Source: Terriglobus albidus
GTDB taxonomy: Bacteria > Acidobacteriota > Terriglobia > Terriglobales > Acidobacteriaceae
Assembly: GCF_025685425.1 (NCBI RefSeq)
Contig: NZ_JAGTAS010000026.1
Span: 62,001-126,000, forward strand
DNA length: 64,000 nucleotides
Direction: 5' to 3'
Below the pieces are notes generated by a model. The model saw only the letters and a list, made by a program, of their open reading frames with translations. It was not told the origin of the DNA and searched no databases. This document shows, in pieces, positions 8,475 through 32,015 of this stretch (within the stretch, counting starts at the first letter, position 1; each line of letters starts with the position of its first letter). A program made the translations under genes and the position numbers.

Positions 8475-9597
8475 ATGCAGCTAATGGATATGAAACAGGA
8501 GCATAAAGCCGCTTTTGATCGTGCCGAAGTGATTATCACCAAGGCAGAGCACGAGAATCGCCCTCTCACCACGTCGGAGAAGGCAGAGTACGGCGAGAAC
8601 ATGGCCAAGTCGAATCCTTGAGTCGTCGAATCAAGGAAGTTGAGTCAAAAAACACAATCAGAAACAAGATGACCAACGGGACGCTCATCATGGATAACGG
8701 GCGTCGGTACAACGCGACGCCTCAGCAGAAGTTCCTTTCCAACCAATATGCCGAGGCGTTCTTCGATTACGTCGCATCGGGCGGCTCGCGCGTCGATGCG
8801 GCGTTATACGAGGGTGCAGACAACGCAGGCGGTTACACCGTACCTCTGACCGTGGAGTCCAACGTCATTCCGCTCGCTCCGCCAGATCAGGGTGTGCGGC
8901 AGGTTGCAACCGTCATTCCCACCGTGATGGACATCAAGCTGCCACGTAAAGGTGCGTTCGGTGTAGCAGGCGCGAAGCCGGAATCGGGGGCTAGCTCCAA
9001 CAGCTTCCCCGAAACTGACCCCGTGCTTGAGCAAGTCACGTTATCCGCATTTATGGCCGGCATTCGAGAAACCATCAGTTGGGAACTCGCGCAGGACGTG
9101 CCGACCTTCCAGGCGTTCGCAGTGGATGACATGCTGACGGCGCAACAGATTTACGAGGGCAACAAATACATCAACGGCGGCGGTACCGGAGAGCCTCAAG
9201 GCTTGCTCGGCAACGTGGGCGCGGGTGTAACCGGAGCGGTGGCAGATGCGCAGGGTAATCTCTTGAGCATTGATGCAACCTTCGATGTCCTCGGCAAGCT
9301 GAAGACGCCATACCACCAGAACGCCGGATGGCTCATGCAGCGATCAACGGCTGTTGCAATCCGCAAGGCGCAGAAGCAGGCAAACCTCTTCGAGCCCGTG
9401 TTCGTTCGCGTGGGTGACCGTGACTATCTGCACGGCTATCCCGTGACGTACGACAGCAACATGCCCTCTACCGCAGCCGGCGCTACCCCTGTTCTGTTCG
9501 GCGACTTCAAAGCCGGATATGTCATTGGTGACCGCGGCGGTTCCGGTATCAACGTGAAGGTGCTCGATCAGGTCCAGGCAATGTATTCAAATTTTCT
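8475..9597 (+). pseudogene. HK97-type major capsid protein, 5' part (frameshifted and split by insertion)
   Basis: The reading from ATG 8475 (MQLMDMKQEHKAAFDRAEVI) gives a coiled HK97 delta domain but stops at TGA 8619-8621. The capsid continues in the -1 frame from 8618 (SRRIKEVES, then GGYTVPLTVESNVI, SAFMAGIRETISWELAQDV, GGGTGEPQGLLG and VLFGDFKAGYVIGDRGG), the typical HK97 fold order. At 9593-9597 the gene is cut by foreign DNA; the last native residues are QAMYSNF. The missing C-terminus lies at 28748-28849. Two independent lesions (a one-base shift and a 19-kb insertion) make it a dead gene. Confidence 0.85.
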
Positions 9598-9632
9598 ATT
9601 TGTCGACAAATCGTTGACATTAAATCTATGAT
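9598..9632 (+). promoter_or_regulatory. Operator palindrome and promoter of the aldolase operon
   Basis: ATTTGTCGACAAAT (9598-9611) is a perfect 14-bp palindrome of the GntR-operator kind. It covers the candidate -35 box TCGACA (9603-9608); after 18 bases comes TATGAT (9627-9632), six bases before the ATG. No ribosome site precedes the ATG, so a leaderless mRNA is likely. The regulator is not in the window. Confidence 0.55.
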
Positions 9633-9638
9633 GCCCAC

Positions 9639-10541
9639 ATGGCAAAATTGGTAACGGGCGTTTATGCGGCAGTACTTACGCCGCGCGATGCCGTGGGAAA
9701 GATCGACGCAGAACGGCTTCGGGGATGGATCGAGTTCCTTCTGCGCAAAGGTGTCCAGGGTTTTGCCATCAATGGAGCAACCGGCGAGTTTCCTATGGTG
9801 ACCGAGGCAGAGTTCTCGGAGCTGATGGAGATCGTGGCCGGTACCGTCGCGGGGCGGGGGAGCTTCCTTGCTGGTGTGGGGGCTGCTGGAAGCTCTGCTG
9901 CCATTTGCCTGGGAAAGATTGCGTATGAGGCGGGCGCGCAGGCTTTGCTGTTACCGATGCCGTACTTCTTCCCATACAGCCAGGGAGATTTGACGGCTTT
10001 CTGCCGCGAGGTGGCCGAGAGTGTGGAGACACCGGTGCTGCTCTACAATCTGCCGCAGTTTACCTCCGGTCTGCAACCGGAGGCGTCGCTGGCGTTGATC
10101 GAACAGTGCAGCAACATCATCGGCATCAAGGACTCGAGCGGTTCGCTGGATACGGTATCGCTGCTGAGCAAGCGCGCGCCGGAGGCATGCCGCATCATTG
10201 GGAATGACAGTGCTCTGGCGCCGGCCTTGAAGAGCAAGGTGGCCGATGGTGTGGTCTCGGGCGTATCGTGCGTGTTGCCGGAGCTGATTACAGCGATCTT
10301 CTCCTCCGGTGTGGAGGAGACCCGCGGCGTGGATCTGGATGCGCTCAACGGCAGGCTGCACATGTTTATCCAGCAGCTTGACCGGATGCCGACGCCGTGG
10401 GGGCTGAAGGTCTTCGGCGAGGCGCGCGGTCTGGCGCATGCGACCTTCCCCTTTGCTCTCAGCGATGAGCGCAGGCAACAGATGCATGAGATGCTGGCGT
10501 GGTTTGCGGAGAACCGCGCAGCCATGATGGTTCAGGAGTAA
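9639..10541 (+). CDS. Dihydrodipicolinate synthase (DapA)-family lyase/aldolase
   Basis: 300 residues, normal for the DapA/N-acetylneuraminate-lyase family of class-I aldolases (TIM barrel). Seen: substrate loop INGATGEFPMVTEAEF, active-site tyrosine in VLLYNLPQF and Schiff-base lysine in IIGIKDSSGS. The context (uronate-type MFS transporter, pectinases) argues for a sugar-acid aldolase or dehydratase, such as a 2-keto-3-deoxy sugar-acid aldolase, rather than lysine biosynthesis. It is the first gene of a three-gene operon; its stop overlaps the next start by one base (TAATG). The exact substrate cannot be read from the sequence. Confidence 0.85.
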   Translation: MAKLVTGVYAAVLTPRDAVGKIDAERLRGWIEFLLRKGVQGFAINGATGEFPMVTEAEFSELMEIVAGTVAGRGSFLAGVGAAGSSAAICLGKIAYEAGAQALLLPMPYFFPYSQGDLTAFCREVAESVETPVLLYNLPQFTSGLQPEASLALIEQCSNIIGIKDSSGSLDTVSLLSKRAPEACRIIGNDSALAPALKSKVADGVVSGVSCVLPELITAIFSSGVEETRGVDLDALNGRLHMFIQQLDRMPTPWGLKVFGEARGLAHATFPFALSDERRQQMHEMLAWFAENRAAMMVQE

Positions 10542-12148
10542 TGGCGATGGTGAAGGAAGTTGTTCTGGTAACAAGCGGCGATCTGCGGCTTTCGGCAAAC
10601 CAGGCCTGCTGGCCGGCACAGAAGGAGCTGGAAGAAAAGCTAACCTCGGTGCTTGCGTCGATGGGTGTTACGTTGCGGCGTGCCTTTCCTGTCAATGAGA
10701 AGACAGGACACGGCTTTCTCTCCAGTCAGCGCATGGGAATGGATGTCTTCGCCACGATCTCCAAGGATATGCCGCTGATCTTTGCGACCGCAGCGTGGCA
10801 GTACACGCATCATGTGCTGCCGGGCATGCGCTTCCACAAGGGACCGATTCTGACGCTTGCGAACTGGTCGGGTCAGTGGCCGGGCCTGGTGGGTCTGTTG
10901 AACCTGAACGGATCGCTGGTCAAAGCGGGCGTAAAATTCTCCACCCTGTGGAGCCGCGGCTTTGACGATGCCTTCTTCCTGCATGGCCTGAAGCAGTGGC
11001 TGGAGACAGGGACGGTTACGCATGATCTTTCGCATGTGACGCCGCTGAAGATCGACAGGCTTCCGGAAGCGGCAAAGACCGCGGGCCGCGAGGTGGCCAT
11101 TGCGCTTCGCGATCACAAGGCGATCTTCGGTATCTTCGATGAAGGCTGTATGGGAATGTACAACGCCATCATCGATGACGAGCTGCTGAATCCCTGTGGG
11201 TTCTTCAAAGAACGGCTGAGCCAGAGCGCGCTCGCCGCGCGCATGAACACAATCAGCGACGAAGAGGCTGCGAAGGTACGCGCGTGGCTCGATGCACGCG
11301 GTCTGCGCTTCGTCACCGGCACAGATGAGGCAACAGAGTTGACCGATCGCCAGATCCTGCTGCAGGCGAAGATGTATATCGCCGCTGTACGCATCGCGGC
11401 GGAGTTCGGTTGCGATGCTATCGGCATTCAGTATCAGCAGGGACTGAAGGATACGACGCCGGCCTCGGATCTGGTGGAAGGCCTGTTGAATAATCCTGAG
11501 CGTCCGCCGGTCTTTGATGAGAATGGTGTAGAGCTCTTCGAGGGTAAGGCGCTGCCGCATTTCAATGAGGTGGACGAGGGCGCCGGTGTCGATGCGCTGG
11601 TGACCAATCGCTGCTGGACGAAACTCGGGCTTGATCCTTCGACGACGCTGCATGACGTGCGTTGGGGCGAAGAGCTCGAGGTCGATGGGGAGAAGCAGTT
11701 TGTGTGGGTGTTGCAGATTTCGGGAGCTGCTCCGGCCAGCCATTTCGTCGGCGGCTATGCAGGTTCGGTCAGTGAGCGGCAGCCGGCGATGTACTTCCCG
11801 CTTGGTGGCGGATCATTGAAGGGTGTCGGCAAACCCGGCGAGATTGTATGGAGCCGTGTCTTTGTCGAAGGCGGCGCGTTGCACGTTGATCTCGGCCGTG
11901 GAACGGTTGTTGCGCTGCCCGAGCAGGAGACGGAGCGTCGCTGGCGCGAGACCACCTATCAGTGGCCCATCGTCAATACGGTGCTGCACGGCGTTACGCG
12001 TGACAGCTTCATGGCGCGCCATCGCGCCAACCACATCAGCATTGCCTATGCGAATGATGCCGCTGGTGCCGATCACGCACTGGCGGTAAAGGCCGCGGCG
12101 TTTGCGGAGCTTGGTGTTAACGTTCATCTATGCGGAGTCAATGCATAG
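10541..12148 (+). CDS. L-fucose/L-arabinose isomerase-fold protein
   Basis: 535 residues from ATG 10541. The layout is that of the fucose-isomerase-like family: two N-terminal Rossmann-like domains (VVLVTSGDLRLSANQ, LANWSGQWPGLVGLLNLNG), a middle domain with FGIFDEGCMGMYNAIIDDEL, where acidic residues could bind metal, and a beta-rich C-terminal domain (PAMYFPLGGG). The family binds a divalent metal and interconverts aldoses and ketoses; here the substrate is likely a pectin-derived sugar or uronate (inference from neighbours). It overlaps both neighbours, by one base upstream and eight downstream. It is distant from true FucI, so no symbol is given. Confidence 0.7.
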   Translation: MAMVKEVVLVTSGDLRLSANQACWPAQKELEEKLTSVLASMGVTLRRAFPVNEKTGHGFLSSQRMGMDVFATISKDMPLIFATAAWQYTHHVLPGMRFHKGPILTLANWSGQWPGLVGLLNLNGSLVKAGVKFSTLWSRGFDDAFFLHGLKQWLETGTVTHDLSHVTPLKIDRLPEAAKTAGREVAIALRDHKAIFGIFDEGCMGMYNAIIDDELLNPCGFFKERLSQSALAARMNTISDEEAAKVRAWLDARGLRFVTGTDEATELTDRQILLQAKMYIAAVRIAAEFGCDAIGIQYQQGLKDTTPASDLVEGLLNNPERPPVFDENGVELFEGKALPHFNEVDEGAGVDALVTNRCWTKLGLDPSTTLHDVRWGEELEVDGEKQFVWVLQISGAAPASHFVGGYAGSVSERQPAMYFPLGGGSLKGVGKPGEIVWSRVFVEGGALHVDLGRGTVVALPEQETERRWRETTYQWPIVNTVLHGVTRDSFMARHRANHISIAYANDAAGADHALAVKAAAFAELGVNVHLCGVNA

Positions 12149-13394
12149 CGTGACGGCCACCGAGTCGCGTACCGGCACGCCCTATCCCTGGCTGCTGGTG
12201 GGCATGCTGTGGTTTGTCTGCCTGTTCAACTATGCGGATCGTCAGGCAATCTTTTCGGTCTTTCCGTTGCTGCGGAAGGAGCTTTCGCTTACGCCGATTC
12301 AGCTCGGCATCGTGGGATCGAGCTTCATGTGGATGTATGCGCTTGCCGGACCGCTGGCAGGGTGGGTGAGCGATCGTATCTCTCCACGCAAGGTGATTAT
12401 CGGCGCGTTGGCCTTCTGGTCGGTGGTAACGGCAGGAACGGCGCTCTGCCATAGCTACGGCATCCTCGTCTTCTTCCGCACGCTGGGTGGGTTGGGTGAG
12501 GCTTTTTACTTTCCCGCGGCCATGGCGCTGATCGGGGCGTATCACGGTGCGGCGACACGGTCCCGGGCAATGGCCCTGCATCAGTCGAGTGTCTACGCAG
12601 GCACCATCACGGGTGGAGCGATGTCCGCGTTCATCGCTGAGCGGCACGGCTGGCGGTCGAGCTTTACCATCTTCGGCGTGCTGGGTGTTGTGCTGGCGGT
12701 GGTGCTGCTCTTCTGCCTGCGGCAGCCTCCGCGTGTTGCCGGCGATGAGCGACAGGAGAACCCGCTGCTGCACTTTGTACGTGGAGTGCGTGAGGTGCTG
12801 CGTAACGGCCGCATTGTCCTGATGATTGCGGTCTTCATGGGAGCGAACTTCGTCGCCGTGGTCTTCCTGACATGGCTGCCGACCTTTCTGCTGGAGAAGT
12901 TCCACATGAGCCTGAGCAATGCCGGCTTCAGCTCGACGGCGTATCTGCAGGCTGCTTCGGTGTTGGGTGTGCTGCTGGGGGGCTGGCTTGCTGACCGGTT
13001 CGCAGCAAAGCGGGCAGGCGGACGTCAGCTGACGCAGGCGATCGGCCTGCTGTGCGGTGTGCCATTTTTGTTTCTTACCGGATGGTCGATCACCGTGTTG
13101 GGACTGATCGTCAGCATGACCGGCTTTGGTTTTTTCAAAGGCATCTACGACGCAAATATCTGGGCATCGTTGTATGACGTAGTGCCGGTGGAGAAGCGCG
13201 GTGTTGCCGCCGGTGTGATGAATAGTCTGGGATGGCTGGGTGGAGGCTTTGCTCCGGTGCTGATTGCTGCGGCAGCACAGAGGTTTGGGCTTTCAGCGTG
13301 TATCAGTGCGACGTCCGTGATCTATCTGTGTCTTTCGGTCGTGATGATGGGACTGGCGGCGAGGCTCGCGAAGCGAGCCTCGGTTAAAAGTTGA
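12141..13394 (+). CDS. MFS transporter, anion:cation symporter type (hexuronate-like)
   Basis: 417 residues from ATG 12141 (GGAG four bases upstream), overlapping the isomerase-like gene by eight bases. Twelve hydrophobic segments are visible, with the family loop GWVSDRISPRKVI between helices 2 and 3 and a repeat of it in the second half (GGWLADRFAAKRAGG). The N-terminal motif LFNYADRQAIFSVFPLL resembles the ACS family, which includes ExuT-type hexuronate and glucarate transporters. Inner membrane, proton-coupled uptake. Its place in the aldolase operon supports uptake of a uronate or pectin monomer. Confidence 0.85.
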   Translation: MHSVTATESRTGTPYPWLLVGMLWFVCLFNYADRQAIFSVFPLLRKELSLTPIQLGIVGSSFMWMYALAGPLAGWVSDRISPRKVIIGALAFWSVVTAGTALCHSYGILVFFRTLGGLGEAFYFPAAMALIGAYHGAATRSRAMALHQSSVYAGTITGGAMSAFIAERHGWRSSFTIFGVLGVVLAVVLLFCLRQPPRVAGDERQENPLLHFVRGVREVLRNGRIVLMIAVFMGANFVAVVFLTWLPTFLLEKFHMSLSNAGFSSTAYLQAASVLGVLLGGWLADRFAAKRAGGRQLTQAIGLLCGVPFLFLTGWSITVLGLIVSMTGFGFFKGIYDANIWASLYDVVPVEKRGVAAGVMNSLGWLGGGFAPVLIAAAAQRFGLSACISATSVIYLCLSVVMMGLAARLAKRASVKS

Positions 13395-13764: not shown

Positions 13765-14559
13765 CTAGAGTGACGCCAGAAAAGCGCGGTCTTCGTCGGA
13801 GAGATCTGCTTTGGCTAACAGGTCGGGGCGGTTGCGGGCGGTCTTCAGGAGCTGTTGTTGCCGTCTCCATTTGCGTACCTGGGCGTGGTCGCCGTTGGCC
13901 AGCACTTCAGGGATGGTGTGACCGAGGAACTCTGCGGGGCGGGTGTAGTGCGGGTAGTCGAGCAGGCCTCCGCTGCCGTGGGTGGCTTGCGGACTTTCGA
14001 GGGTGTGTTCGATCTCCTCGTCGCTGTGGCCGAAGGATTCGAAGCGGGCGGAGTCGGCGTTGCCCAGCACGCCGGGCAGCAGTCGCGTAACCGCGTCGAG
14101 GATGATGGCCGCGCCCAGCTCGCCGCCTGAGAGAACGTAATCTCCGACGGAGAGTTCGCGGTCGCAGAGCAGGGTGTTGACGCGTTCGTCCACGCCTTCG
14201 TAGCGTCCGCAGATCATGGTGATGCGTTCCAGCCTGGAGAGTTCGTGAGCAATGCTCTGGGTAAACGGCTTGCCGCCCGCTGCCAGCAAGATGACGGATT
14301 CGTGTGTCAGATCGCGTTCGGCCAATGGAGTGATGCCGATCGATGCGGCGCACTCGAAGATGGGCTGGGCTTTCAGCACCATGCCTTCGCCTCCACCGAA
14401 GGGCCGGTCGTCGACAGTGCGATGGCGGTCGTGCGTAAAGGCACGGAGGTCGTGGGTGTTGGCAGAGACCACGCCTTTACGAATGGCGCGGGAGACCACG
14501 CCGTAGTCGAGGGGGCCGGCGAAGAAGCCGGGAAAGATGGTGATGATCTCGAACCGCAT
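13765..14559 (-). CDS. trmD: tRNA (guanine37-N1)-methyltransferase TrmD
   Basis: 264 residues, full length. SPOUT trefoil-knot motifs are intact: [12 protein letters not shown] and [14 protein letters not shown] for S-adenosylmethionine binding, and [11 protein letters not shown] in the C-terminal tRNA-binding domain. It methylates G37 of tRNAs reading CNN codons and prevents +1 frameshifts; it is normally essential. The usual partners rpsP, rimM and rplS are absent. The gene stands alone, on the opposite strand, inside a pectin locus that itself lies in a prophage. It is therefore either a second copy or a relocated housekeeping gene. Confidence 0.95.
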
Positions 14560-14739
14560 CCTGAGAGTTCAGTGTACGTCTCCTGCGAACAGGGAAGAGG
14601 GGGTGTACTTCGCCGGGGCTGGTTCGGTATAGTCCATACCGAGCCGTGTGGGACCCCGTTTTGCGTTCCTGGGAGGTTTTTCCGGGACAAATCCGGCCGG
14701 TTGAGATAACGTTTTCTTAAATCCGTTCGAGGAAGATAC

Positions 14740-16623
14740 ATGCAAATGAAGTGGATGGCAGTTGGCCTCAGCGCGCTGGCGCTGGGGGTTGCGGCGGCGC
14801 AGCAGCCGGCGAAGCTGAGCGTGGACACCACGCAGAAGACGGCTGATGTGAGCCCTACGCTCTATGGCCTGATGACAGAAGAGATCAACTTCAGCTACGA
14901 CGGTGGCCTGTATGCGGAGATGATCCGCAACCGCACCTTCACCAACCGCTGGCCGCGGTTTGAGTGGTGGCGTGTGGTGACCCAGGGCGACTCCTCCGCT
15001 GTCGTGGAGAACGGCGACAGCGGCCCCAGCGAGGCGTTGCCCAAGAGCATGAAGCTCGTGGTGCGCGAGGCATCGAAGGGCAACGAGGCGGGTGTTACTA
15101 ACGATGGCTACTGGGGCATGCCGGTGCGGCCTTCCTCGACTTACAGCGGATCGTTCTATGCCAAGCCTGCGGGTGTGGGGACGGCGCATATCCGCCTGAT
15201 TGCGAACCAGACCGCTGCGACGCTGGCGGAGACGACCGTACCGCTGACCGATGGCGACTGGAAGAAGTATGACTACACCCTGAAGACGGGCGCAGGCGTG
15301 GTTCCGGGCAAAGACAATCATTGGGAGATGACGTTTACCCAGAAGGGCAGCATCGAGCTGCAGATGGTCAGCCTGTTCCAGCCCACGTTCAACAACCGCG
15401 AGCATGGCAATCGTCCCGACCTGATGAAGATGCTGGCGGCCATGCATCCGAACTTCCTGCGCTTCCCCGGCGGTAACTACGTCGAGGGCAACACGCTGGC
15501 CGAGCATTTCGATTGGAAGAAGACCATCGGGCCGCTGGTCGATCGTCCGACGAAGCGGACCTCATGGGGCTATACCTCGAGCGACGGCATGGGCCTGCTC
15601 GAGTTCCTGGAGTGGTGTGAGGACCTCAAGATGGAGCCGGTGCTGGCCATCTTCGCCGGTTACACGCTGAACGGAGAACATGCCGAGGGCGACGCGCTGA
15701 ATCCCTATATTGCCGACGCCCTGGATGAGATCGAATACGTGATTGGTGACACGAGCACCAAGTGGGGCGCGGTCCGTGCTCGCGACGGACATCCGGAGCC
15801 GTTCAAGCTGCGCTTTATCGAAGTCGGCAACGAAGATAACCTCGACCGCTCGGGTAGCTACATCAAGCGCTATCCGCCATTTGAGAAGGCCCTCCGCGCG
15901 AAGTATCCGCAACTGAAGCTGATTGCGACTGCATGGCAGCATGGCGGCTCGCCCGACCTGGTGGACGATCACTACTATCAGACTCCGCATGAGTTCTTTG
16001 ACCTGGTGCACAAATACGACAACGGCGACCGCAACGGCCCGAAGATCTTCGTGGGTGAGTGGGCGACGCGTACCGGCTCGCCGACGCCCGACTTCGGCGC
16101 TGCGCTGGGTGATGCTGCCTGGATGACCTCGATGGAGCGCAACTCCGACCTGGTGGTCATGGCTGCGTATGCTCCGCTGTTTACGAACGTGAATCCGGGC
16201 GGCATGCAATGGTCGAGCGATCTGATCGGCTATGACGCGCTGCATTCGTATGGCTCTCCCAGCTACTGGGCGCAGGTGCTCTTCAACGAGCATCTGGGAA
16301 CGCAGGTGGCGAAGAGCCAGGCCGAAGGAGTGGGCAGCCGGTTCTTCTGGTCGGCGACGGTTTCGCCGGCGAAGAAGGTGCTCTACCTGAAGCTGGTGAA
16401 CGCGAGCGATCGTCCCGAGGCGCTGACGCTGGACGTCACGGGAGCCAAGGCGGGAGCCGCGGTTACCAACACCATGCATGCAGCGACCTGGTATGTGACC
16501 AACGCAATCGATCATCCGGAGACCATCAAGCCGGTGAAGGGAACCACCATCGTAACGGCGGGCAGCTGGAAGCACGTGGTGGGACCGAACACCATTGAGG
16601 TGATCGACATTCCTCTGAAATAA
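14740..16623 (+). CDS. GH51 alpha-L-arabinofuranosidase, secreted
   Basis: 627 residues. Signal peptide MQMKWMAVGLSALALGVAAA with cleavage near AAAQQ. The N-terminal beta domain (SPTLYGLMTEEINFSYDGGL, MIRNRTFTNRWP) is followed by a TIM barrel with LRFPGGNYVEG, the acid/base Glu in IEVGNEDN and the nucleophile Glu in KIFVGEWATRTG, then a C-terminal beta-sandwich. It removes arabinose side chains of arabinan or pectin, here in the periplasm or outside the cell. GAGGAAG is the ribosome site. It has its own promoter region, shared divergently with trmD, and a strong terminator follows. AACGTTTTC upstream is a weak LacI-like half-site. Confidence 0.92.
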   Translation: MQMKWMAVGLSALALGVAAAQQPAKLSVDTTQKTADVSPTLYGLMTEEINFSYDGGLYAEMIRNRTFTNRWPRFEWWRVVTQGDSSAVVENGDSGPSEALPKSMKLVVREASKGNEAGVTNDGYWGMPVRPSSTYSGSFYAKPAGVGTAHIRLIANQTAATLAETTVPLTDGDWKKYDYTLKTGAGVVPGKDNHWEMTFTQKGSIELQMVSLFQPTFNNREHGNRPDLMKMLAAMHPNFLRFPGGNYVEGNTLAEHFDWKKTIGPLVDRPTKRTSWGYTSSDGMGLLEFLEWCEDLKMEPVLAIFAGYTLNGEHAEGDALNPYIADALDEIEYVIGDTSTKWGAVRARDGHPEPFKLRFIEVGNEDNLDRSGSYIKRYPPFEKALRAKYPQLKLIATAWQHGGSPDLVDDHYYQTPHEFFDLVHKYDNGDRNGPKIFVGEWATRTGSPTPDFGAALGDAAWMTSMERNSDLVVMAAYAPLFTNVNPGGMQWSSDLIGYDALHSYGSPSYWAQVLFNEHLGTQVAKSQAEGVGSRFFWSATVSPAKKVLYLKLVNASDRPEALTLDVTGAKAGAAVTNTMHAATWYVTNAIDHPETIKPVKGTTIVTAGSWKHVVGPNTIEVIDIPLK

Positions 16624-16644
16624 AAGTCCCTCCCCGGAAAGCAC

Positions 16645-16686: not shown

Positions 16687-16715
16687 CGCGCAAAGCACAC
16701 TTTCTTCTAAGGCTT

Positions 16716-16847
16716 AGAGCAGTTCTCCATCAGCTATAGAGCTGCAAAAGGGAGTCTGAAGCAAGCACTTGGTCATTGGGTGTGATGGAAGGAGCATTGG
16801 GTCCTTGCAATGAAACAAGCTCTATACCCCAAAGAGAACACTCTAAA
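16716..16847 (+). repeat. MITE-like repeat unit, copy 1
   Basis: About 132 bp, nearly the same as 17134-17268. The ends are inverted (AGAGCAGTTCTC and AGAGAACACTCT). Shared internal blocks include GAGCTGCAAAAGGGAGTCTG and CAAGCTCTATACCCCAA. No coding potential. It could be a non-autonomous mobile unit or a structured RNA; the sequence does not settle which. Confidence 0.6.
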
Positions 16848-16849
16848 GC

Positions 16850-17133
16850 ACTGAAGGCCTTTCCACCCCAACGAACGTGTTCGTTGGGGGCAGACGCGTT
16901 CTATACCAGCCTACTGCTACGCCCAGGTTTTCGCGCTATATCGAAGTTCGTTCCTGTTTTGCTTAAGGGCACGGCTTCAGCCGTGCCGTATAAAGTTGGC
17001 AAGAAACGCGGCTTTAGCCGCTGAGGTCATGGTTTGGTACCTCAGCGGCTAAAAGCCGCATATCTTCTGGGCTCAGTACGGGACGGCTGAAGCCGTCCCC
17101 TTAAGCAAGGCATTCGCGCCGCAGGCGCGAACC
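16850..17133. repeat. Intergenic repeats between the two MITE-like units
   Basis: No gene seen. It holds a copy of the 24-bp palindrome (arms CCCCAACGAAC and GTTCGTTGGGG, 16866-16889). It also holds the hairpin GCACGGCTTCAGCCGTGC near 16968-16985, the pair GCGGCTTTAGCCGC (near 17009) and CAGCGGCTAAAAGCCG (near 17042), and GGACGGCTGAAGCCGTCC near 17081-17098. The same three hairpin types recur at 22850-23120. Confidence 0.6.
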
Positions 17134-17268
17134 AGAGCTGTTCTCCATCAGCCATAGAGCTGCAAAAGGGAGTCTGAACCAAGCAGTTGGTCGTTTGGTG
17201 TGATGGGAGAGAGCATCCGGGTCCTCGCAAAGAATCAAGCTCTATACCCCAATAAAAGAACAGCTCTA
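17134..17268 (+). repeat. MITE-like repeat unit, copy 2
   Basis: About 135 bp, direct repeat of 16716-16847 with some substitutions. The terminal inverted repeats are better preserved here: AGAGCTGTTCT at the left and AGAACAGCTCT at the right. The right end lies about 175 bp upstream of the TonB receptor start. Confidence 0.6.
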
Positions 17269-17272
17269 GTAG

Positions 17273-21345: not shown

Positions 21346-21439
21346 CGTAGGTAGCAGCCAGCTCGTGGGCCCTGCATGACCACGTCATGTGGGGCTCAAT
21401 TTCTTACCGACAACAATCTGCACCGCAGGAGTATGTTGT

Positions 21440-22777
21440 ATGCGCTTCAAGGTAGCTGCATTCTTCCCCCTTGCCGCCGGCGTATTGCTCTGTCCGGCCC
21501 TGTCTGCCGCTCAGGACTTCAACGTCCCCAACGATCGCCGTCCCGCTGACAAGCGGCCCACGCCGGAGGAGGTCGCGCATCCCCCCAAGAGCTGGATCGA
21601 TAAAGACACCGGCCACCGCGTCATTCGTCTGACGGATGAGCCGGGCTCGGCCAGCTTCTACTTCAACGTCAATGCCTACACTCCCGACGGCAAAGAGATG
21701 GTTTACACCACGCCGGAAGGCATCTCGGTGTTGGACCTGCACACGCTCAAGTCGCGCAGCGTGGTGAAGGGTAAGGTGCGCACGCTGGAGGTAGGCCACA
21801 AGACGCAGAGTATCTTCTATGTGAAGAACGACGAGCGTGCGGTCTACAAAACCAACGTCGATACCGGCGAGACCACCATGCTGGCCAAGCTGCCTCCGCG
21901 CGGCAACATTGTCTCGGTGAATGCAGACGAGACGCTGGCCGCGGGAACATACGACGAAGAAGATCGCCCGAACGAACAGTATGGCCGCAACGGACGCACC
22001 TCAACCGGACAGCCGGCCGGTGTTTCGCAGACCAGCCCTCTGGATCAGCCGGTCAATAAAGGCGAGATGATGGAGCGGCGTCTGGCGGCGAAGATTCCGC
22101 TGGTGCTCTACACGCTGGACCTGCGTAACGGCAAAGTCACCCCACTGCTGCATTCGACCGACTGGGTGAACCATCTGCTCTTCTCACCCAGCGATCCGAA
22201 GCTGCTGATGTATTGCCATGAGGGCCCGTGGCAGAAGGTCGACCGCATCTGGACCATCTGGACCGACGGCACGCACAATCAACTCATGCACAAGCGCACT
22301 ATGGCGATGGAGATCGCGGGGCACGAGTTCTGGGGACAGGATGGAAAGACCGTCTACTACGATCTGCAAACACCGAAGGGCGAGGACTTCTGGTTGGCGT
22401 CTCTGAATCTCGAGACAGGGAAGCGCAACTGGTATCACATGGATCGCAATGAGTGGTCGATTCACTTCAACGTGAATGAGAAGGCTGGCTTGTTCACAGG
22501 TGACGGCGGCGATCCGCATCAGGTAGCTCGCGCTCCTGATGGCGAGTGGATCTATCTCTTCCATGCGAAAAAAATCCAGAGTGAGGGCATGATGGATGGC
22601 CCTGAGTTTGTTCAGCCGTGGGTCTTCCAGTCGGAGAAGCTGGTGAATATGAGCAAGCACAACTATACGCTGGAGCCGAATGTAAGCTTTACGCCGGATA
22701 TGAAGATGGTGATCTTCCGGTCGAATATGTTCGGACCGACGTACGTGTTTGGCGTGGAGATTGAGAAGGCGAAGTAG
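21440..22777 (+). CDS. PL22 oligogalacturonate lyase
   Basis: 445 residues from ATG 21440 (CAGGAG upstream); an earlier in-frame start at 21389 lacks a ribosome site. Signal peptide MRFKVAAFFPLAAGVLLCPA. The remainder is a seven-bladed-propeller type protein with SWIDKDTGHRVIRLTDEPG at the N-terminus, as in oligogalacturonide lyases, and late blades carrying conserved His (MAMEIAGHEFWGQDGKTVYY, GDGGDPHQVARAPDGEWIYL). The family beta-eliminates unsaturated digalacturonate with a Mn ion. Most known PL22 enzymes are cytoplasmic; here an export signal is visible. It probably shares a transcript with the receptor, 94 bases upstream. Confidence 0.88.
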   Translation: MRFKVAAFFPLAAGVLLCPALSAAQDFNVPNDRRPADKRPTPEEVAHPPKSWIDKDTGHRVIRLTDEPGSASFYFNVNAYTPDGKEMVYTTPEGISVLDLHTLKSRSVVKGKVRTLEVGHKTQSIFYVKNDERAVYKTNVDTGETTMLAKLPPRGNIVSVNADETLAAGTYDEEDRPNEQYGRNGRTSTGQPAGVSQTSPLDQPVNKGEMMERRLAAKIPLVLYTLDLRNGKVTPLLHSTDWVNHLLFSPSDPKLLMYCHEGPWQKVDRIWTIWTDGTHNQLMHKRTMAMEIAGHEFWGQDGKTVYYDLQTPKGEDFWLASLNLETGKRNWYHMDRNEWSIHFNVNEKAGLFTGDGGDPHQVARAPDGEWIYLFHAKKIQSEGMMDGPEFVQPWVFQSEKLVNMSKHNYTLEPNVSFTPDMKMVIFRSNMFGPTYVFGVEIEKAK

Positions 22778-22786
22778 CTGTTGATG

Positions 22787-22822
22787 AAAAAGAGGCACCC
22801 CGAAGGGTGCCTCTTTTGTTTT
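22787..22822 (+). terminator. Rho-independent terminator after PL22
   Basis: AAAAGAGGCACCC and GGGTGCCTCTTTT form a perfect stem around CGAA, followed by GTTTTGG. It ends the receptor-lyase transcript. Confidence 0.9.
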
Positions 22823-22849
22823 GGTTTGAATTGAGTGGCGACTTTAGAA

Positions 22850-23277
22850 ATGACCTCAGCGGCTAAAGCCGCGCTTGGTGGAAGTCTTGTACGGGACGGC
22901 TGAAGCCGTCCCCTTAAGCACGGCATTCGCGCCTTCAGCGCGAAACCGTTGCGCGACGCGCAATGGTTTATAAGTCTTTCTATAAGTAATGTTGTTGCGA
23001 AAACGCCGTCTTTGTCGGGCTGCAATTTCTTATCAACGTCGCAGGATGGTCTTGCTTAAGGGCACGGCTTCAGCCGTGCCGAACTAATGCAGAACGAAGA
23101 TGCGGCTTTAGCCGCTGAGGGCAATGTGTTGGAGAAACAGATTTCTTCGCTGCGCTACGAAATGACAAACAAAAAGCTCGAGCTTCGCTCGAATGTCCCA
23201 CCCATCGCGATATCACCCCAGCGAACAAGTTCGTTGGGGACCTCGATGTGCGATGGATGGGGCAACCGGTGCATGGT
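22850..23277. repeat. Intergenic cluster of dispersed repeats
   Basis: No gene seen. Hairpin repeats of the CGGCTGAAGCCG and GCGGCTTTAGCCGC kinds (22855-22915 and 23060-23120) match those at 16960-17100. A TTTCTTCGCTGCGCTACGAA ATGACAAAC block lies at 23141-23170 and recurs at 54500-54530 and, inverted, at 60432-60475. The 24-bp palindrome (CCCCAGCGAAC / GTTCGTTGGGG) is at 23216-23239. The region separates two convergent transcription units. Confidence 0.6.
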
Positions 23278-24489
23278 CTACTTCTTCTTCGTCATCCGTT
23301 TCAGTTCGCTGCCGGCCATCAGGAAGCCGCCTACGCCGTAGGTGTAGCTGGCGCTGGGGCGGTAGTAGGCGGGCTCGGCGCCGGTCTGCTGGATGTTGCC
23401 CAGGCGGCCGTCGGCGTAGATGTTGGTGAGCAGCCCGGCCCATGCCTTCTTGATCACCGGCATGTACTTCGCCTTGTCGAGGATGCCTTCATTCACGCCA
23501 TAAGCCATGCCGTAGACGAAGAGAGACGCGCCTGAGGTCTCGGCCGCAGGGAAGTGTTCCGCATCGAGCAGGCTTGCGTGCCACTGTCCATCTTTGTCCT
23601 GCAGCTCGGCGATGCGTGCGGCCATGTCCTTGAGTTGTTGCACATAGAAGGGACGCCGTGGGTCGTCCTTGGGAAGGAACTGCAGTGTACGGGCGAGACC
23701 GGCCATCACCCAGCCTTCGCCACGCGACCAGAAGATCTTTTTGCCGTTCGGGCCGCGCTTGGGGATGTAGCTCGCGTCACGCGCATAAAGACGCTCATCC
23801 TTGTCCCACAGCAGATCATAGGTGCGTTGCCACTGCGCGTTCATGTAGTCGATGTACTTGTGATCGCCGGTTGCGGCGTACATGCGGACATACACAGGTG
23901 GGGCCATGAACAGGGCATCACACCACCACCAGGGAATGCGCGGGTCGCCGGGACGCAGCGTCTCCAGCGGCATGACGGTATCAAGGGTGTGGATGGTGGG
24001 AGCGATGATCTTCGCATCCTTCTTACCGCCGGCGAGATAGAGCTCGGCATAGGTCTGCGCGATGCTGATGTCATCGGCATTCGGCAGCTTGTCAGGATTG
24101 CGCGGCTGGTACTCGAACTTCTCGGCCATTTCGGCCATGGCATTGCGATACTTCGGATCGCCCAGTGAGTCAGAGGCAGCCATGAAGCCGCTGTAGAGCA
24201 CGCTCCAGGTCCAGATCCTGTCGAAATAAGGCTGCGACTCCTTGAGCTGCCGGTCGGCGACCTTGCGCATCACCTTGTCGATCGCGGCAGGCGACAGCGC
24301 GGGAGAGATGTCTTTCGCGAGCGGACCGGCATCTTCCGGCGAGGTGCCGAAGTGACGGCCGTTGTCCTTATCGATGATGGCCTGCATCTCCGGTGTGGGC
24401 TTCGGACTCTGCTGCGCGTGCGCAGAGATGGAGACCGCGGCGAGAGCAAGCGATGCAACTCCCGCGCGGAAGAGAGACGATGTCTTCAT
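23278..24489 (-). CDS. GH105 unsaturated rhamnogalacturonyl hydrolase, secreted
   Basis: 403 residues from ATG 24489. Signal peptide MKTSSLFRAGVASLALAAVS, cleavage near AHAQQ. The (alpha/alpha)6-barrel motifs of GH105/GH88 are present: RIWTWSVLYSGFMAASDS, PWWWCDALFMAPPVYVRMY with the likely catalytic Asp, IFWSRGEGWVMAGLART and ETSGASLFVYGMAYGVN. It removes the unsaturated uronic acid left at the non-reducing end by pectate or rhamnogalacturonan lyases. Third gene of a minus-strand operon; only seven bases separate it from the GH28 stop. Confidence 0.93.
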   Translation of the reverse strand: MKTSSLFRAGVASLALAAVSISAHAQQSPKPTPEMQAIIDKDNGRHFGTSPEDAGPLAKDISPALSPAAIDKVMRKVADRQLKESQPYFDRIWTWSVLYSGFMAASDSLGDPKYRNAMAEMAEKFEYQPRNPDKLPNADDISIAQTYAELYLAGGKKDAKIIAPTIHTLDTVMPLETLRPGDPRIPWWWCDALFMAPPVYVRMYAATGDHKYIDYMNAQWQRTYDLLWDKDERLYARDASYIPKRGPNGKKIFWSRGEGWVMAGLARTLQFLPKDDPRRPFYVQQLKDMAARIAELQDKDGQWHASLLDAEHFPAAETSGASLFVYGMAYGVNEGILDKAKYMPVIKKAWAGLLTNIYADGRLGNIQQTGAEPAYYRPSASYTYGVGGFLMAGSELKRMTKKK

Positions 24490-24496
24490 GCGTGCG

Positions 24497-25906
24497 TTAT
24501 TCCTCGTATTTATGCGGGGTTTGAGCGTTGGCATCGCTCTTCTTTGAAGTCTGCGTAAGGCCCTTGATGTTCTCTGTGTCATCCAGCGCGACGGAACTGC
24601 CGTCGGCGATCTGCAGCTTCAGGTCGTGCAGGTTCCAGTCGCGCGCGGCGCTGATGTGTCCGGCGGTGCCGGCCTGTACATCCAGGTGATCGATCTCAAA
24701 GTGCTCGACCGGCTTCTTCGGATTGCCGGCGACGTCGAAGACCATTTTGGCACCGGTCGCTTTGATGTTCCAGATGTGCACATCGTGGAAGTAGGCAATG
24801 CCCTTCTCTTCAGGGACAGGGGTTGTAAGGACCTTGTAGTAGTCCGGATAGTTGGTCAGGCCATCGGGGATTTTGGTGTAGCTGTAGTTCGGATTCCAGT
24901 TCATGGTCATGCGCAGCACAGTTGGTGTGTCTTCCATCACCAGGTCGTGAATGCGTATGTTCTCGCCGAAGCCGCCGCGCGTGCGGGCTGATTTGAAGAG
25001 GATGCCTGACGGAACTCCCTTGAGTGTGCGCAGGTTGTAGATCTCGATGTTGCGGAATCCGCCCGAGGTCTCGCTGCCGAAGGTTACGCCTGCCGCTCCG
25101 ACACGGATCAGCGAGTCGCGGATGATGATGTCTTGCGTGGGGCGATTGACGCGCAGCCCATCGGCATCGCGCCCGGCCTTCAGGCAGATGGCGTCATCGT
25201 TGTTCTCGATGTCGGCGTGGGCGACGGTAACTTTGCGGGAGGAGTCGATATCGACGCCGTCTGTCGAAGGGCCATGTCCGCCTTCATTGGCGCGGACGAT
25301 CACTCCGTCTACCAACACATCGTGCGAGTAGACCACCTGTACGGTCCAGAAGCCGGGGCGTTTCAACAGCAGGCCACCACCAAGCTTCACATCGTGTGAG
25401 TCATAGATAACGATCAGGCGCGGGCGTTTGGCGTCGTAGTCCGCGGCCCAGCGCAGGCCTTTGGGATCGTCCTCTTTGCGCAGTGCCCAGTAGCCGTCCC
25501 ACCAGACCTTGCCGTCGCCGTCGACGGTGCCTTCGCCGGTGATGGCGGCGTTGTGCTCCTGGTAGACGTTGATCAGAGCCGCGGGCCAGGTCATCTCAAT
25601 ACCGGCAACGCGCGTGGGACGCATGGGATAGTCTTCGAGCTTCTGCGATCCCTGAATGGTGACGCCTTTGTCGATCTGCAGCGTCACGCCCGACTTCACG
25701 AAGATGGCGCCGGTCAGATAGGTGCCCGCGGGGAAGGTGACGGTGCCGCCGTGTTTTGCAGCGGCATCGATGGCGCTCTGAATGGCTTTGGTGTTCAGTG
25801 TGACGCCATCGCCCTTGGCTCCGTATCTGGCGACAGAGAAGGTTGCGGCCGCAGCAGAGACGGTGGTGCAGGCAAGAGCAAGGAGGGAAAGAAGTGTCTT
25901 CTTCAT
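24497..25906 (-). CDS. GH28 polygalacturonase family glycosidase, secreted
   Basis: 469 residues. Signal peptide MKKTLLSLLALACTTVSAAA. A parallel beta-helix follows, with GAKGDGVTLNTKAIQSAIDA at its start and the GH28 catalytic aspartates in STDGVDIDSS and NNDDAICLK. The third motif is FGSETSGG instead of the GHG motif of endo-polygalacturonases. That form is common in exo-acting or rhamnogalacturonan-active GH28 enzymes, so galacturonate or rhamnogalacturonan hydrolysis from chain ends is the best guess. Middle gene of the operon, 12 bases after the GH106 gene and seven before GH105. Confidence 0.93.
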   Translation of the reverse strand: MKKTLLSLLALACTTVSAAAATFSVARYGAKGDGVTLNTKAIQSAIDAAAKHGGTVTFPAGTYLTGAIFVKSGVTLQIDKGVTIQGSQKLEDYPMRPTRVAGIEMTWPAALINVYQEHNAAITGEGTVDGDGKVWWDGYWALRKEDDPKGLRWAADYDAKRPRLIVIYDSHDVKLGGGLLLKRPGFWTVQVVYSHDVLVDGVIVRANEGGHGPSTDGVDIDSSRKVTVAHADIENNDDAICLKAGRDADGLRVNRPTQDIIIRDSLIRVGAAGVTFGSETSGGFRNIEIYNLRTLKGVPSGILFKSARTRGGFGENIRIHDLVMEDTPTVLRMTMNWNPNYSYTKIPDGLTNYPDYYKVLTTPVPEEKGIAYFHDVHIWNIKATGAKMVFDVAGNPKKPVEHFEIDHLDVQAGTAGHISAARDWNLHDLKLQIADGSSVALDDTENIKGLTQTSKKSDANAQTPHKYEE

Positions 25907-25918
25907 GCGCGTTTCCTG

Positions 25919-28678
25919 TTATTGCTGCGCTTCAAATACAAGTTCAATGTTGCCGAGAATGCCTGATGGGACGGGCTTGACCTTATCGAGGTCCTGCATC
26001 TGGAAGCGGTCGCCGTACTTTTCAATCAGTGGCTCGTAGTCATGCGGAGGCAGTGCTGACCAGGCGTTGAGCGCGGTGTTGTAGACATAGATCTCGATCT
26101 TGTTCTCACCAGACTTCAGCAGCCCGGCGATGTCCAGGCGATAGGGCGGATGCCACAGCGCTCCCGCCGGCTTGCCATTTACGACGAGCAGGGCGCCTTC
26201 GCGCACAGGCGGGTTGTACCAGGCGCGGGTGCCAGGCCCTGTGCGGGTGACCAGGGGATTGGGAATGCCCTCACGCTTCTCAGCGCTTGGCGGAGCATCG
26301 GGAGCTCCAGGCTCCGCGCTGCCGCCGCTGATGGTGAGATACACACCTGAGGTCGGAGCCCTCTCGATACGGAAGCCGCGCGAGTAGACCGCCTCACCGG
26401 AGTAATGCAGCGTGGCTTCGTTGGAGGTCCAGTCAGCAAGCGTGTGCTGTGTTTCTGTCTTGCCCGTGCCGGTGAAGCTGACACTCCAGTCGTGGCTCAG
26501 ATCGATGGGAGTGGTCGACGCTGTCGTTGTGGCTTTGCTTGCGGCAGCGGTCACTCCATTGCCGAAGAGATACGTTCTTGACTCATAGGGAGCCAGTGTC
26601 AGCACGATCTTCTTCGGTGCGAACGTGCCGGGTAGTGCGTGGCCAGTCTCCGGATCGAGCGCCACGCCTGATGCGTAGCTGGTGGCGAAGCTGACAGTCG
26701 CTTTGATCTCGCGATTGCTGGTGTTGGTCAGGAAGTAGATATCGCCGGTTGAAAGCTTGCGGCGGATGAAGCCGATTGCGTTGCGGTCGAAGTCTGCGGT
26801 ATCGAACGAAAGATCGGGAACTGCTGCTTGGTGTAAGGCCGTGGTCAGTTCAACGGTGGTGTTGGCTGCTGCAGGAAACAGATTCGAAGCGAGCTCCGTG
26901 AGCTCGGCGGAAGGCCGGCCCTCGGGAGTGAGTGTGGGCAAGTGGCCGTAGGCAACGACCTTGCCTCCGGCTGCCTTGAAGGCAGCGATCTTCTTCAGCG
27001 TGGAGACAGGGATGCGTGTTGTTGGCGGCAGCAGCAGAATGCTGTGCTGCACGCCCAGGCGATCGATCGCTTCCGCATCGGTGAAGTCGAAGTTGTAGCC
27101 GGCGGAGAGGATCGCGCCCAGCATCTCCTTAGGAAGGAGGTCCTGCATCGCTCCGGTGACGGTGACCTTGGTCGGCCTGAAGGCTGCCCATGCATCGTCG
27201 GTCGGCAACAGAACTGCGACCTGGTTTGCGGGCTTGCCTTGTCGCATCAGGTAGCTCAGACGGGCGATGTAGTTTGTCACCGCAGGCATGACCGGATGCC
27301 ACGGGTTGTGATCATTGAAGACGGCGGCGGCGTAGAGCGACCAACCGGGCTCTCCTACCTGTGGCGCCGAGTAGGGCCAGCCGTGGAAGATGAGCTGGTT
27401 CTCGCCCATGATGAAATCGATGTCGGCTTCGGCCTTCATATCGAGCGGTGTCGCACGGAAGACGGGCGAGTGCAGCCAGGTAAAGGTCTCGCCGGAGGTG
27501 ACGTTATTGCCAAAGAGGTGATTGCCGGAGCTGGCCCAGCGCAGTGTCGAAAAGGCCCGCCACTGCGGTCCTTCACCTTCGGGTAGAGCGACAAGCTTCT
27601 GGCTCGAGAGTGAGACGGCGGGCTCGCCATAGGTCTGCGAACGGAACTTCGTGCCGTGCTGTTTGGCCCAGTCATTGATCTGCACCAGGTAGGCTTCGTT
27701 GACCAGCTCGGTCAGCGTCTTGCCCCAGTCGTGGCGAATGTTCGCGGAGTTCGGAGCGTCGCCCGCCACCAGTTCGGGCAGGTGTGGAAGCAGATCGTAG
27801 CCGCGACGTTTGCGGAACTCTTCGGGAAGCGTTGGCGTCCAGTCGGCTCCATAGGCTTCGAGGGAGTCGGAGAAGATGGCGTAGGGAGGCGTATTGCCGA
27901 AGGCTTTGACGAGAGGCTCGCCCACGGTCTTCAGATGAGTGGCGACTGCTTCCTTGCTGAAAGGATCGAGCACCCAGCCTTCAGCACCGACTGCGGCGCG
28001 TTTCACCATCTGGCCGGTGTGGCTCTGAACGAAGAAAAGGATCGCGCGCGGCACGTCTGCTGCAGTGACTTTTGCGGACGCAGAGTCCAGTGTTGCTGGC
28101 GATGAGGTGGAGGCATCCCACTTCGACTGCGTTCCGTTCACGGCTGCGGCGTAGATGAGGCTCTCGCCCTCTTTCAATGCGGGCAGTGGAGTGCTGGCGG
28201 CTCCCGCAGGCAGTGCCGCGACGATGGTGCGCAGGCGCGTTGCTGCATTGTGCAGCGTGACGGTGGGGCCGCCGTAGGGCCAGCCGCTGCCGAGGGTGAC
28301 ATCGATGCGCAGACCGAGCTTGCGGCCCTCTGCCTGGGCGTACTGCACGGCATCAAGCATCTCGGGCGAGAGGAAGGAGAAGTTCTTCAGGCCGCTTGCG
28401 GGATCATCGAGGACCTGGGGATAGACGAAGGCGAGCTCTGCTCCGCCGATGCCATCGGCCTTCATCTGCTGCAGCTCGCGCAGAATCTCGGGCTTCTCCA
28501 CTGCGGGGCCGAACCACCACCAGCGCACCATGGGTTTGGCCTCGTTGGGCGGACTCAGAAATCCCTGTTGGATGGCTTGCAGAGACGGTGCGGCTTGCGC
28601 GTATGCAGAGACGTGGCAGCAGGCAAAGGCCAAGGCAGCCGCCGGCAGCAGCAGCTGTTTGCAGGGTAGAGATTTCAT
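25919..28678 (-). CDS. GH106 alpha-L-rhamnosidase, secreted
   Basis: 919 residues. Signal peptide at residues 1-28 (LLLPAAALAFACCHVSAYAQ). The N-terminal barrel shows the GH106 signature MVRWWWFGPAV and then EILRELQQMKADGIGGAELA; IDVTLGSGWPYGGPTVTLHN and ENQLIFHGWPYSAPQ follow. The C-terminus has jelly-roll domains, ending NIELVFEAQQ. It releases rhamnose from rhamnogalacturonan or similar glycans. First gene of the GH106-GH28-GH105 operon, whose order suits stepwise trimming of rhamnogalacturonan I. Its promoter lies against the insertion junction. Confidence 0.87.
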   Translation of the reverse strand: MKSLPCKQLLLPAAALAFACCHVSAYAQAAPSLQAIQQGFLSPPNEAKPMVRWWWFGPAVEKPEILRELQQMKADGIGGAELAFVYPQVLDDPASGLKNFSFLSPEMLDAVQYAQAEGRKLGLRIDVTLGSGWPYGGPTVTLHNAATRLRTIVAALPAGAASTPLPALKEGESLIYAAAVNGTQSKWDASTSSPATLDSASAKVTAADVPRAILFFVQSHTGQMVKRAAVGAEGWVLDPFSKEAVATHLKTVGEPLVKAFGNTPPYAIFSDSLEAYGADWTPTLPEEFRKRRGYDLLPHLPELVAGDAPNSANIRHDWGKTLTELVNEAYLVQINDWAKQHGTKFRSQTYGEPAVSLSSQKLVALPEGEGPQWRAFSTLRWASSGNHLFGNNVTSGETFTWLHSPVFRATPLDMKAEADIDFIMGENQLIFHGWPYSAPQVGEPGWSLYAAAVFNDHNPWHPVMPAVTNYIARLSYLMRQGKPANQVAVLLPTDDAWAAFRPTKVTVTGAMQDLLPKEMLGAILSAGYNFDFTDAEAIDRLGVQHSILLLPPTTRIPVSTLKKIAAFKAAGGKVVAYGHLPTLTPEGRPSAELTELASNLFPAAANTTVELTTALHQAAVPDLSFDTADFDRNAIGFIRRKLSTGDIYFLTNTSNREIKATVSFATSYASGVALDPETGHALPGTFAPKKIVLTLAPYESRTYLFGNGVTAAASKATTTASTTPIDLSHDWSVSFTGTGKTETQHTLADWTSNEATLHYSGEAVYSRGFRIERAPTSGVYLTISGGSAEPGAPDAPPSAEKREGIPNPLVTRTGPGTRAWYNPPVREGALLVVNGKPAGALWHPPYRLDIAGLLKSGENKIEIYVYNTALNAWSALPPHDYEPLIEKYGDRFQMQDLDKVKPVPSGILGNIELVFEAQQ

Positions 28679-28706
28679 GCAGGCGAGCTTACTCCCTCAG
28701 GTGCGA

Positions 28707-28736
28707 ACTCTAGTGAAGCTGATATGCCAGTGTCAA
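28707..28736 (-). promoter_or_regulatory. Promoter of the GH106-GH28-GH105 operon
   Basis: On the minus strand TTGACA (28731-28736), 18 bases, then TAGAGT (28707-28712), about 28 bases before the GH106 ATG. The upstream edge of this promoter is only 11 bases from the capsid sequence. Confidence 0.5.
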
Positions 28737-28747
28737 TAGGTAAACAG

Positions 28748-28849
28748 TTTCTGGAAATTCAGGGTCAGATCGTGTTGCTTGCATACCGTCGCAGTGACGG
28801 CCGCGTCCGCCGCTCCGAGGCAATCCAGGGTATTACCCTCCACAGCTAA
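28748..28849 (+). pseudogene. HK97-type capsid protein, 3' end separated from its gene
   Basis: Thirty-three codons and a stop, without a start. They read FLEIQGQIVLLAYRRSDG, then RVRRSEAIQGITLHS. This is the usual HK97 capsid ending (QGQ..LLAYRR.DGR....EAI). Joined to TTTCT at 9593-9597 it continues the 5' part in frame (QAMYSNF then LEIQGQ), with no residues apparently lost. It shows that 9598-28752 is an insertion. Confidence 0.85.
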
Positions 28850-31998: not shown

Positions 31999-32015
31999 GA
32001 TTTGAACCGGAAGTG

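What the first reader, a model, noticed from the sequence alone, without database searches (positions are those of the whole stretch)
9593..28752. A 19.15-kb pectin-utilisation block is inserted exactly inside a prophage capsid gene, with a 5-bp TTTCT duplication
The capsid gene stops matching HK97 proteins after QAMYSNF at 9595. Its proper ending (LEIQGQIVLLAYRR, SEAIQGITLHS) appears 19 kb away at 28748-28849. Joining the two at TTTCT restores the frame (distance 19155, divisible by 3) without loss of residues at the family's usual spacing. TTTCT is present at both junctions. The block has ten genes for pectin breakdown, uptake and catabolism plus trmD. It has no transposase, integrase or clear terminal repeats. 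Movement of a whole catabolic locus as one precise unit with a 5-bp duplication would need an unknown or trans-acting mechanism.
Basis: partly seen in the sequence, partly recalled or inferred. Interest (0 to 1): 0.92.

Follow-up and report, generated by a model that had tools for sequence, protein, structure and literature searches.

The report
Pectin gene block moved into prophage
In one soil bacterium a 19-kilobase stretch of its own chromosome, carrying pectin-breakdown genes and the only copy of a tRNA-modifying gene thought to be essential, has left its old place and now sits inside a decayed virus remnant elsewhere in the genome, probably through a one-off DNA repair accident rather than a jumping element.

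Summary
The block interrupts an HK97-type capsid gene, and both halves match phage homologs. TTTCT is not a target duplication: in relatives the block's right end runs through and past it (G015 GTTTCTGGAAAT, G012 GTTTCTGAAAATT). The joined capsid has a linker seven residues longer than its homologs, so the restored frame is a coincidence. No terminal repeats were found. The insert is about 19.16-19.18 kb (roughly 9581-28759).

The new finding is the donor site. In four related genomes the block lies in the chromosome, with a GntR regulator on its left and an IclR-type regulator on its right (directly in three; after one extra gene in G017). In this genome those two regulators are neighbours on another contig (C19, scar about 182,063-182,204) and the block is missing there; it was found once, inside a tRNA-Val-integrated prophage remnant. 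Block and flank trees agree, so a distant source is unlikely. It carries the only trmD found.

Best explanation: a non-homologous relocation within the lineage. The joining mechanism (Ku is encoded) is inferred. Open: copy-then-loss, or arrival from a very close strain. A trans-acting transposition system is unsupported.

The parts
5356..5416 (.). Left attachment-site copy: 61-nt direct repeat of part of tRNA-Val(gac)
   Evidence: the repeat finder D2, 97% to 32010-32070; the same repeat at the tRNA-Val of relatives
8475..9580 (+). 5' part of a prophage HK97-type major capsid gene, frame broken near 8618; phage sequence ends about 9580
   Evidence: phrog_10 3.6e-33 for 8618-9595; alignment to 8 homologs; early stop in frame 8475
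9581..28759 (.). Relocated chromosomal block, about 19.16-19.18 kb (left edge uncertain 9581-9597, right edge 28757-28759)
   Evidence: One continuous chromosomal stretch in G002 and G017 (G017 without the GH28 gene), contig pieces in G012 and G015
9598..9611 (.). ATTTGTCGACAAAT palindrome, probable operator of the GntR/FCD regulator left behind on C19 (role inferred)
   Evidence: Present in G000, G002, G012, G015 and G017; its core TTTGTCGACAAA occurs once in the window, at 9599
9639..10541 (+). DHDPS/aldolase family gene
   Evidence: PF00701 3.9e-41
10499..12148 (+). L-fucose isomerase-like gene
   Evidence: PF02952 9.1e-07, just below cut-off
12102..13394 (+). MFS transporter
   Evidence: PF07690 3.8e-59; best NCBIfam TIGR00893 D-galactonate transporter, below cut-off
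13765..14559 (-). trmD, only copy found in the genome
   Evidence: NF000648 279.5 bits, cut-off 220; one PF01746 match in G000
14740..16623 (+). alpha-L-arabinofuranosidase family gene
   Evidence: PF22848, PF06964
17446..21345 (+). outer-membrane beta-barrel protein with carboxypeptidase-regulatory domain
   Evidence: PF25183 1.2e-149
21389..22777 (+). oligogalacturonate lyase family gene
   Evidence: PF14583 1.7e-17
23278..24582 (-). GH88 family gene
   Evidence: PF07470 1.7e-75
24497..25906 (-). GH28 polygalacturonase/rhamnogalacturonidase family gene
   Evidence: PF00295 2.3e-19; NF049899 below cut-off
25919..28678 (-). GH106 alpha-L-rhamnosidase family gene
   Evidence: PF17132 1.1e-64
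28760..28849 (+). 3' part of the capsid gene
   Evidence: Aligns with 8 of 8 homologs; tblastn match to 10 of 11 capsid loci
29264..30547 (+). tail-fibre-like prophage gene
   Evidence: phrog_2282 1.1e-15
31511..31960 (+). C-terminal fragment of a tyrosine integrase; N-terminal part not found
   Evidence: phrog_1 1.8e-23; the 378-residue L002 integrase frame aligns with 28701-32200 only over residues 228-357 (E 1.8e-21), the two other hits having E 0.20 and 2.8
32010..32102 (-). right attachment site in intact tRNA-Val(gac), gene 32026-32102
   Evidence: ARAGORN, repeat D2

Best explanation
A piece of this bacterium's own chromosome (about 19.2 kb, nine pectin/rhamnogalacturonan genes plus trmD) was relocated in this lineage from between the GntR-type and IclR-type regulator genes of its rhamnogalacturonan locus into the capsid gene of a prophage (now a decayed remnant) integrated in tRNA-Val(gac). 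SHOWN: the block is in the prophage; its ancestral neighbours are adjacent on another contig of the same genome; one copy was found; block and flank genes give the same tree; TTTCT is not a target duplication; no terminal repeats were found. INFERRED: a non-homologous joining of a broken-out or copied fragment at a break in the prophage (Ku-dependent or alternative end joining), tolerated because the prophage was dispensable and kept because trmD must be retained. Whether the donor was cut out in the same event or lost after duplication is open. The donor scar coincides with the block edges to within about 57 bp on each side, which favours a single event or a selected clean loss. The GntR protein would now act in trans through the operator-like palindrome kept at the block's left edge.
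For: Donor site: G002's left flank matches G000:C19:178824-182046 and its right flank C19:182205 onward, block absent; left homology extends to 182062 against G012 (16 bp, 0 of 300 shuffles) and to 182061 against G002 (11 of 300), but not significantly against G015 (145 of 300) or G017 (212 of 300). Both flanking regulators are intact ORFs on C19. GntR next to the block's first gene: G002, G012, G015, G017. GH106 next to the IclR-type regulator: G002, G012, G015 directly; G017 after a DUF4450 gene. Same topology for block, left-flank and right-flank trees; G000-G002 identity 88.6% block, 90.4% flanks. Single copy: the first 3.8 kb, trmD and the right-end 1.5 kb match G000 only at C21. No TTTCT duplication, no terminal repeats. 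Ku: two matches in G000.
Against: No reads were available; the junctions rest on a 58-contig assembly. Against a misjoin: three separate new adjacencies, and the sequences around each match the genome once. Nothing in the sequence names the enzyme. Beyond its first 16 bp the 158-bp scar (182047-182204) is not significantly similar to any relative's intergenic sequence. Ku was not found in G012 (94% complete) and LigD was not searched. The close match of donor scar and insert edges is better than random breaks would give unless selection filtered it. The block is more divergent than the right flank in all ten genome pairs, though this holds in pairs without G000 too. Whether the prophage was already decayed at insertion is unknown.
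Confidence: 0.72

Rival explanations
1. Copy first, loss later (a sub-case of the best explanation, so its odds lie within it): the block was duplicated into the prophage, for example by template switching during repair, and the original was deleted later.
For: trmD is present once in 18 of 19 genus genomes; if essential, as elsewhere (recalled), a second copy must exist before the first is lost, unless the move was conservative.
Against: The donor scar matches the block edges to within 56 and 57 bp; an independent deletion would be expected to leave remnants or remove more.
Confidence: 0.3
2. The block arrived on the prophage from a closely related strain (specialised-transduction-like capture), and the resident chromosomal copy was lost.
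For: The block lies between two tRNA-Val att copies; the site has an integrase beside it in G015 and a second att copy in G002.
Against: Divergence and topology of the block match the resident flanks, so the source would have to be very close. The integrase is a fragment and the capsid is broken. Neither junction was found by exact pattern in IMG/VR, and no close copy of the capsid gene was found in 300 relatives (best 56% identity).
Confidence: 0.15
3. Dedicated transposition of the block by a trans-acting system.
For: Clean insertion; donor scar close to the block edges.
Against: No 5-bp duplication, no terminal repeats, no transposase or recombinase among the ten block genes scanned, and the same location in four relatives.
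Confidence: 0.05
4. Assembly artefact: chromosomal and phage sequences misjoined.
For: Draft assembly of 58 contigs.
Against: Sequences around both junctions and the scar match the genome once; both capsid halves flank the block; the donor site is separately closed on C19.
Confidence: 0.04

Closest known systems
Non-homologous chromosomal rearrangement (NHEJ or alternative end joining) in bacteria
   Same: Insertion without the claimed target duplication or terminal repeats; Ku is encoded. PMC7719229 (passages) reports enrichment of conventional NHEJ in Acidobacteria and a Ku transfer between an Alphaproteobacterium and the common ancestor of Acidobacterium, Granulicella and Terriglobus. PMC12140377 (abstract and outline) reports translocations in E. 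[quoted passage not shown]
   Different: A 19-kb multi-gene block including trmD was moved and its donor site closed close to the block's edges; nothing ties this event to either pathway.
Prophage cargo (moron / lysogenic-conversion genes; recalled)
   Same: Host-useful genes between prophage genes in a tRNA-integrated element.
   Different: The cargo comes from this lineage's chromosome, the phage is broken, and the insert splits the capsid gene.
Tn7-like and other 5-bp-duplicating transposons (features recalled)
   Same: Clean insertion of a multi-gene segment.
   Different: No 5-bp duplication, no terminal repeats and no transposase found in the block.

Membership tests
Tn7-like / 5-bp-TSD transposon | 5-bp target-site duplication at the insert edges | tested here: not met
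   TTTCT and bases after it belong to the block in G015, G012 and G002
Tn7-like / 5-bp-TSD transposon | terminal inverted repeats | tested here: not met
   60-bp ends: best inverted match TTGACA only, 343 of 500 shuffles as good
Tn7-like / 5-bp-TSD transposon | transposase genes in the element | tested here: not met
   Pfam on nine block genes and trmD gave none; small ORFs of the block were not scanned, apart from one without a match
tRNA-integrated prophage | att repeats, one in an intact tRNA gene | tested here: met
   61-nt repeat, tRNA-Val at 32026-32102
tRNA-integrated prophage | complete integrase and virion genes | tested here: not met
   integrase C-terminal fragment; capsid frame broken and split; no other head or packaging match among the ten ORFs scanned
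Intragenomic relocation | donor site closed in the same genome, block single copy | tested here: met
Intragenomic relocation | block and donor flanks share one history | tested here: met
   same unrooted tree for 10 block genes and 6 flank genes in five genomes, several gene sets incomplete
NHEJ-mediated insertion | Ku and LigD in the genome | tested here: inconclusive
   Ku twice in G000; LigD not searched

The most novel reading that the evidence does not exclude
A trans-acting cut-and-paste process without classical end sequences moves whole functional gene blocks between loci in these soil Acidobacteria, and decayed prophages act as landing sites for core genes.
Probability: 0.06. Interest if true: 0.85.

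Novelty: new member of a known kind. Interest (0 to 1): 0.5.

Why it matters
The old and the new site of a 19-kb relocation are both visible in one genome, with four relatives giving the ancestral order. That makes it a clean case for how multi-gene blocks can move in bacteria without a transposon. It also places the only trmD found inside a prophage remnant, which prophage-removal or genome-reduction work would wrongly treat as dispensable. And it warns that a short direct repeat plus a restored reading frame is weak evidence for a target-site duplication.

Tried and rejected
Rejected: 5-bp TSD, terminal repeats, exact capsid restoration, distant origin of the block. Exact-pattern scans of IMG/VR for either junction found nothing. 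A capsid search of 300 genomes matched 22, own included; the best other match is 56% identical, so no near copy of this prophage without the block was found.

Inconclusive: anchored alignments of the block's left edge (score zero, reached by all 500 shuffles) and of the donor edge (57, 292 and 298 of 500) to relatives' upstream sequence. The scar's alignments to relatives' right intergenic sequence were weak: 18, 49, 53 and 69 of 300 shuffles as good, the best one not collinear. Left-edge homology starts at 9594 against G017 and 9597 against G002, G012 and G015, so 9581-9596 may be old intergenic sequence or filler.

Literature: eight searches. Apart from the passages named elsewhere I saw listings only, 20 of 1,039 papers, 15 of 22 and 8 of 311; two searches returned none. 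No listed title or abstract start described such a move. Only open-licence PMC papers are held; PMC6379672 was not held. PMC1378119 passages gave background only.

Full report
What is there. The window is G000:C21:62001-126000 of a 6.1-Mb, 58-contig genome. The three capsid relatives in named genomes come from Acidobacteriaceae, one labelled Terriglobus. A prophage remnant is integrated in tRNA-Val(gac): a 61-nt repeat at 5356-5416 and 32010-32070, the second inside the intact tRNA. Recognisable are an HK97-type capsid gene, a tail-fibre-like gene and the C-terminal part of an integrase. The capsid frame is broken near 8618 and the gene is split by the block.

The junctions. Both capsid halves align with 8 of 8 homologs (six distinct). 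The joined protein is not at the family's spacing: 10 of 11 homologous loci showed the linker motif, all with 5 residues (7 distinct strings), against 12 in the window joined at TTTCT. At the right end, G015 (GTTTCTGGAAAT), G012 (GTTTCTGAAAATT) and G002 (GTTTCTAGAAAA) show that GTTTCT and the next bases are block, not phage; G017 differs there (ATTCCAGAATT). TTTCT is therefore not a target duplication, and divisibility by three has a one-in-three chance. The edges are about 9581 and 28759, giving 19.16-19.18 kb; the phage may have lost zero to three bases (inferred from the spacing). The ends share no significant inverted or direct repeat.

The donor site. A DNA search of 200 genomes with the block matched 193 somewhere, mostly single genes at lower identity; in the capped list, long matches over most of the block appear in G002, G012, G015 and G017 of the same genus. 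In G002 and G017 the block is one continuous chromosomal stretch (G017 lacks a GH28 match and G002 has extra sequence between the MFS and trmD genes). G012 and G015 show it in contig pieces. In all four, a GntR/FCD regulator lies just left of the block's first gene. On the right, GH106 is followed by an IclR-type regulator with a periplasmic-binding domain in G002, G012 and G015, and in G017 after a large DUF4450 gene; an isomerase-like and a RhaT gene come next in G002, G015 and G017. In G000 the left flank lies at C19:178824-182046 and the right flank from C19:182205; the peptidase-S15-type gene, GntR, the IclR-type regulator, the isomerase-like gene and RhaT are all on that contig. Both regulators are intact (C19:181276-182028 and 182465-183562). 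The left homology continues to 182062, 56 bp short of the block edge in G012 (0 of 300 shuffles; G002 11, G015 145, G017 212 of 300). The right homology resumes 57 bp past the block edge in G002. The scar thus matches the insert to within about 57 bp on either side. It occurs once in the genome.

History. Ten block genes and six flank genes give the same unrooted tree: G012 with G015, then G002, with G000 branching next to the most divergent genome G017 (several gene sets are incomplete for G012, G015 or G017). Identities G000-G002 are 88.6% (block) and 90.4% (flanks), G000-G017 79.0% and 82.5%. The block is lower than the right flank in all ten pairs, with or without G000, and near the left flank in G000-G002 (88.5%). 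This fits relocation within the lineage or from a very close strain. In G002 the tRNA-Val gene and the block lie about 278 kb apart across the contig ends, if that single contig is circular.

trmD. One match in G000, in the block, over the NCBIfam equivalog cut-off. Of 19 genus genomes, G000 included, 18 have one match and G011 (10% contamination) two. In G002, G012, G015 and G017 trmD is part of the block; in G008 it is on another contig than the fucI-like homolog. Essentiality is recalled, not tested.

Mechanism. Without duplication, repeats or a recombinase gene, the simplest account is non-homologous joining of a chromosomal fragment at a break in the prophage. Ku is found twice in G000 and G015, once in G002 and G017, not in G012; LigD was not searched. 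Conventional NHEJ is reported as enriched in Acidobacteria (PMC7719229, passages), and prophages and transposable elements as shaping acidobacterial genomes (PMC5900883, passages). Whether the donor was excised in the same event or lost later cannot be decided: the edge match favours one event, the need for trmD favours a two-copy intermediate unless the move was conservative.

Regulation. ATTTGTCGACAAAT at 9598-9611, just upstream of the first gene, is present in all five genomes at this place; its core occurs once in the window, and its 10-base centre also once in G002's right flank. It is probably the operator of the GntR protein, now encoded on another contig; this is inference.

Verdict. 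It is interesting because both scars are visible and the only trmD found now sits in a decayed prophage; it is not evidence for a new mobile element.

Noticed in passing
window 16700-17250 and 22850-23240; C19:182205-182370 (L073): Palindromic intergenic repeats of the GGCACGGCTTCAGCCGTGCC type in the block and beside the donor scar; REP-like, possibly linked to RAYT transposases (recalled, not tested).
   Followed up: no
G000, tens of places; queries L053 and L052: Repeats of about 100-115 bp from G002's intergenic regions match tens of places across G000 contigs.
   Followed up: no
C19:182032-182065 region and many places in G000, G002, G012, G015: A roughly 30-bp AAGTTGAAAGTTGAAG-type intergenic repeat recurs across these genomes.
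   Followed up: no
L123 (G002:C1 about 20.7-23.0 kb) and L125 (G015:C296): G002 has a second copy of the tRNA-Val att repeat about 2.2 kb away and G015 an integrase frame (48% identical) beside the same tRNA: an integration hotspot.
   Followed up: partly
window 13765-14559 and its homologs in G002, G012, G015, G017: trmD is part of the rhamnogalacturonan locus in these five genomes, but not in G008.
   Followed up: partly
window 5582-6520 (-), 6579-6980 (-), 7121-8328 (+), 30339-31601 (+): Prophage-side ORFs without PHROGs matches, and without Pfam matches for the four scanned there; 6582-6986 resembles a stretch near the capsid gene of L002 (49% over 69 residues).
   Followed up: partly
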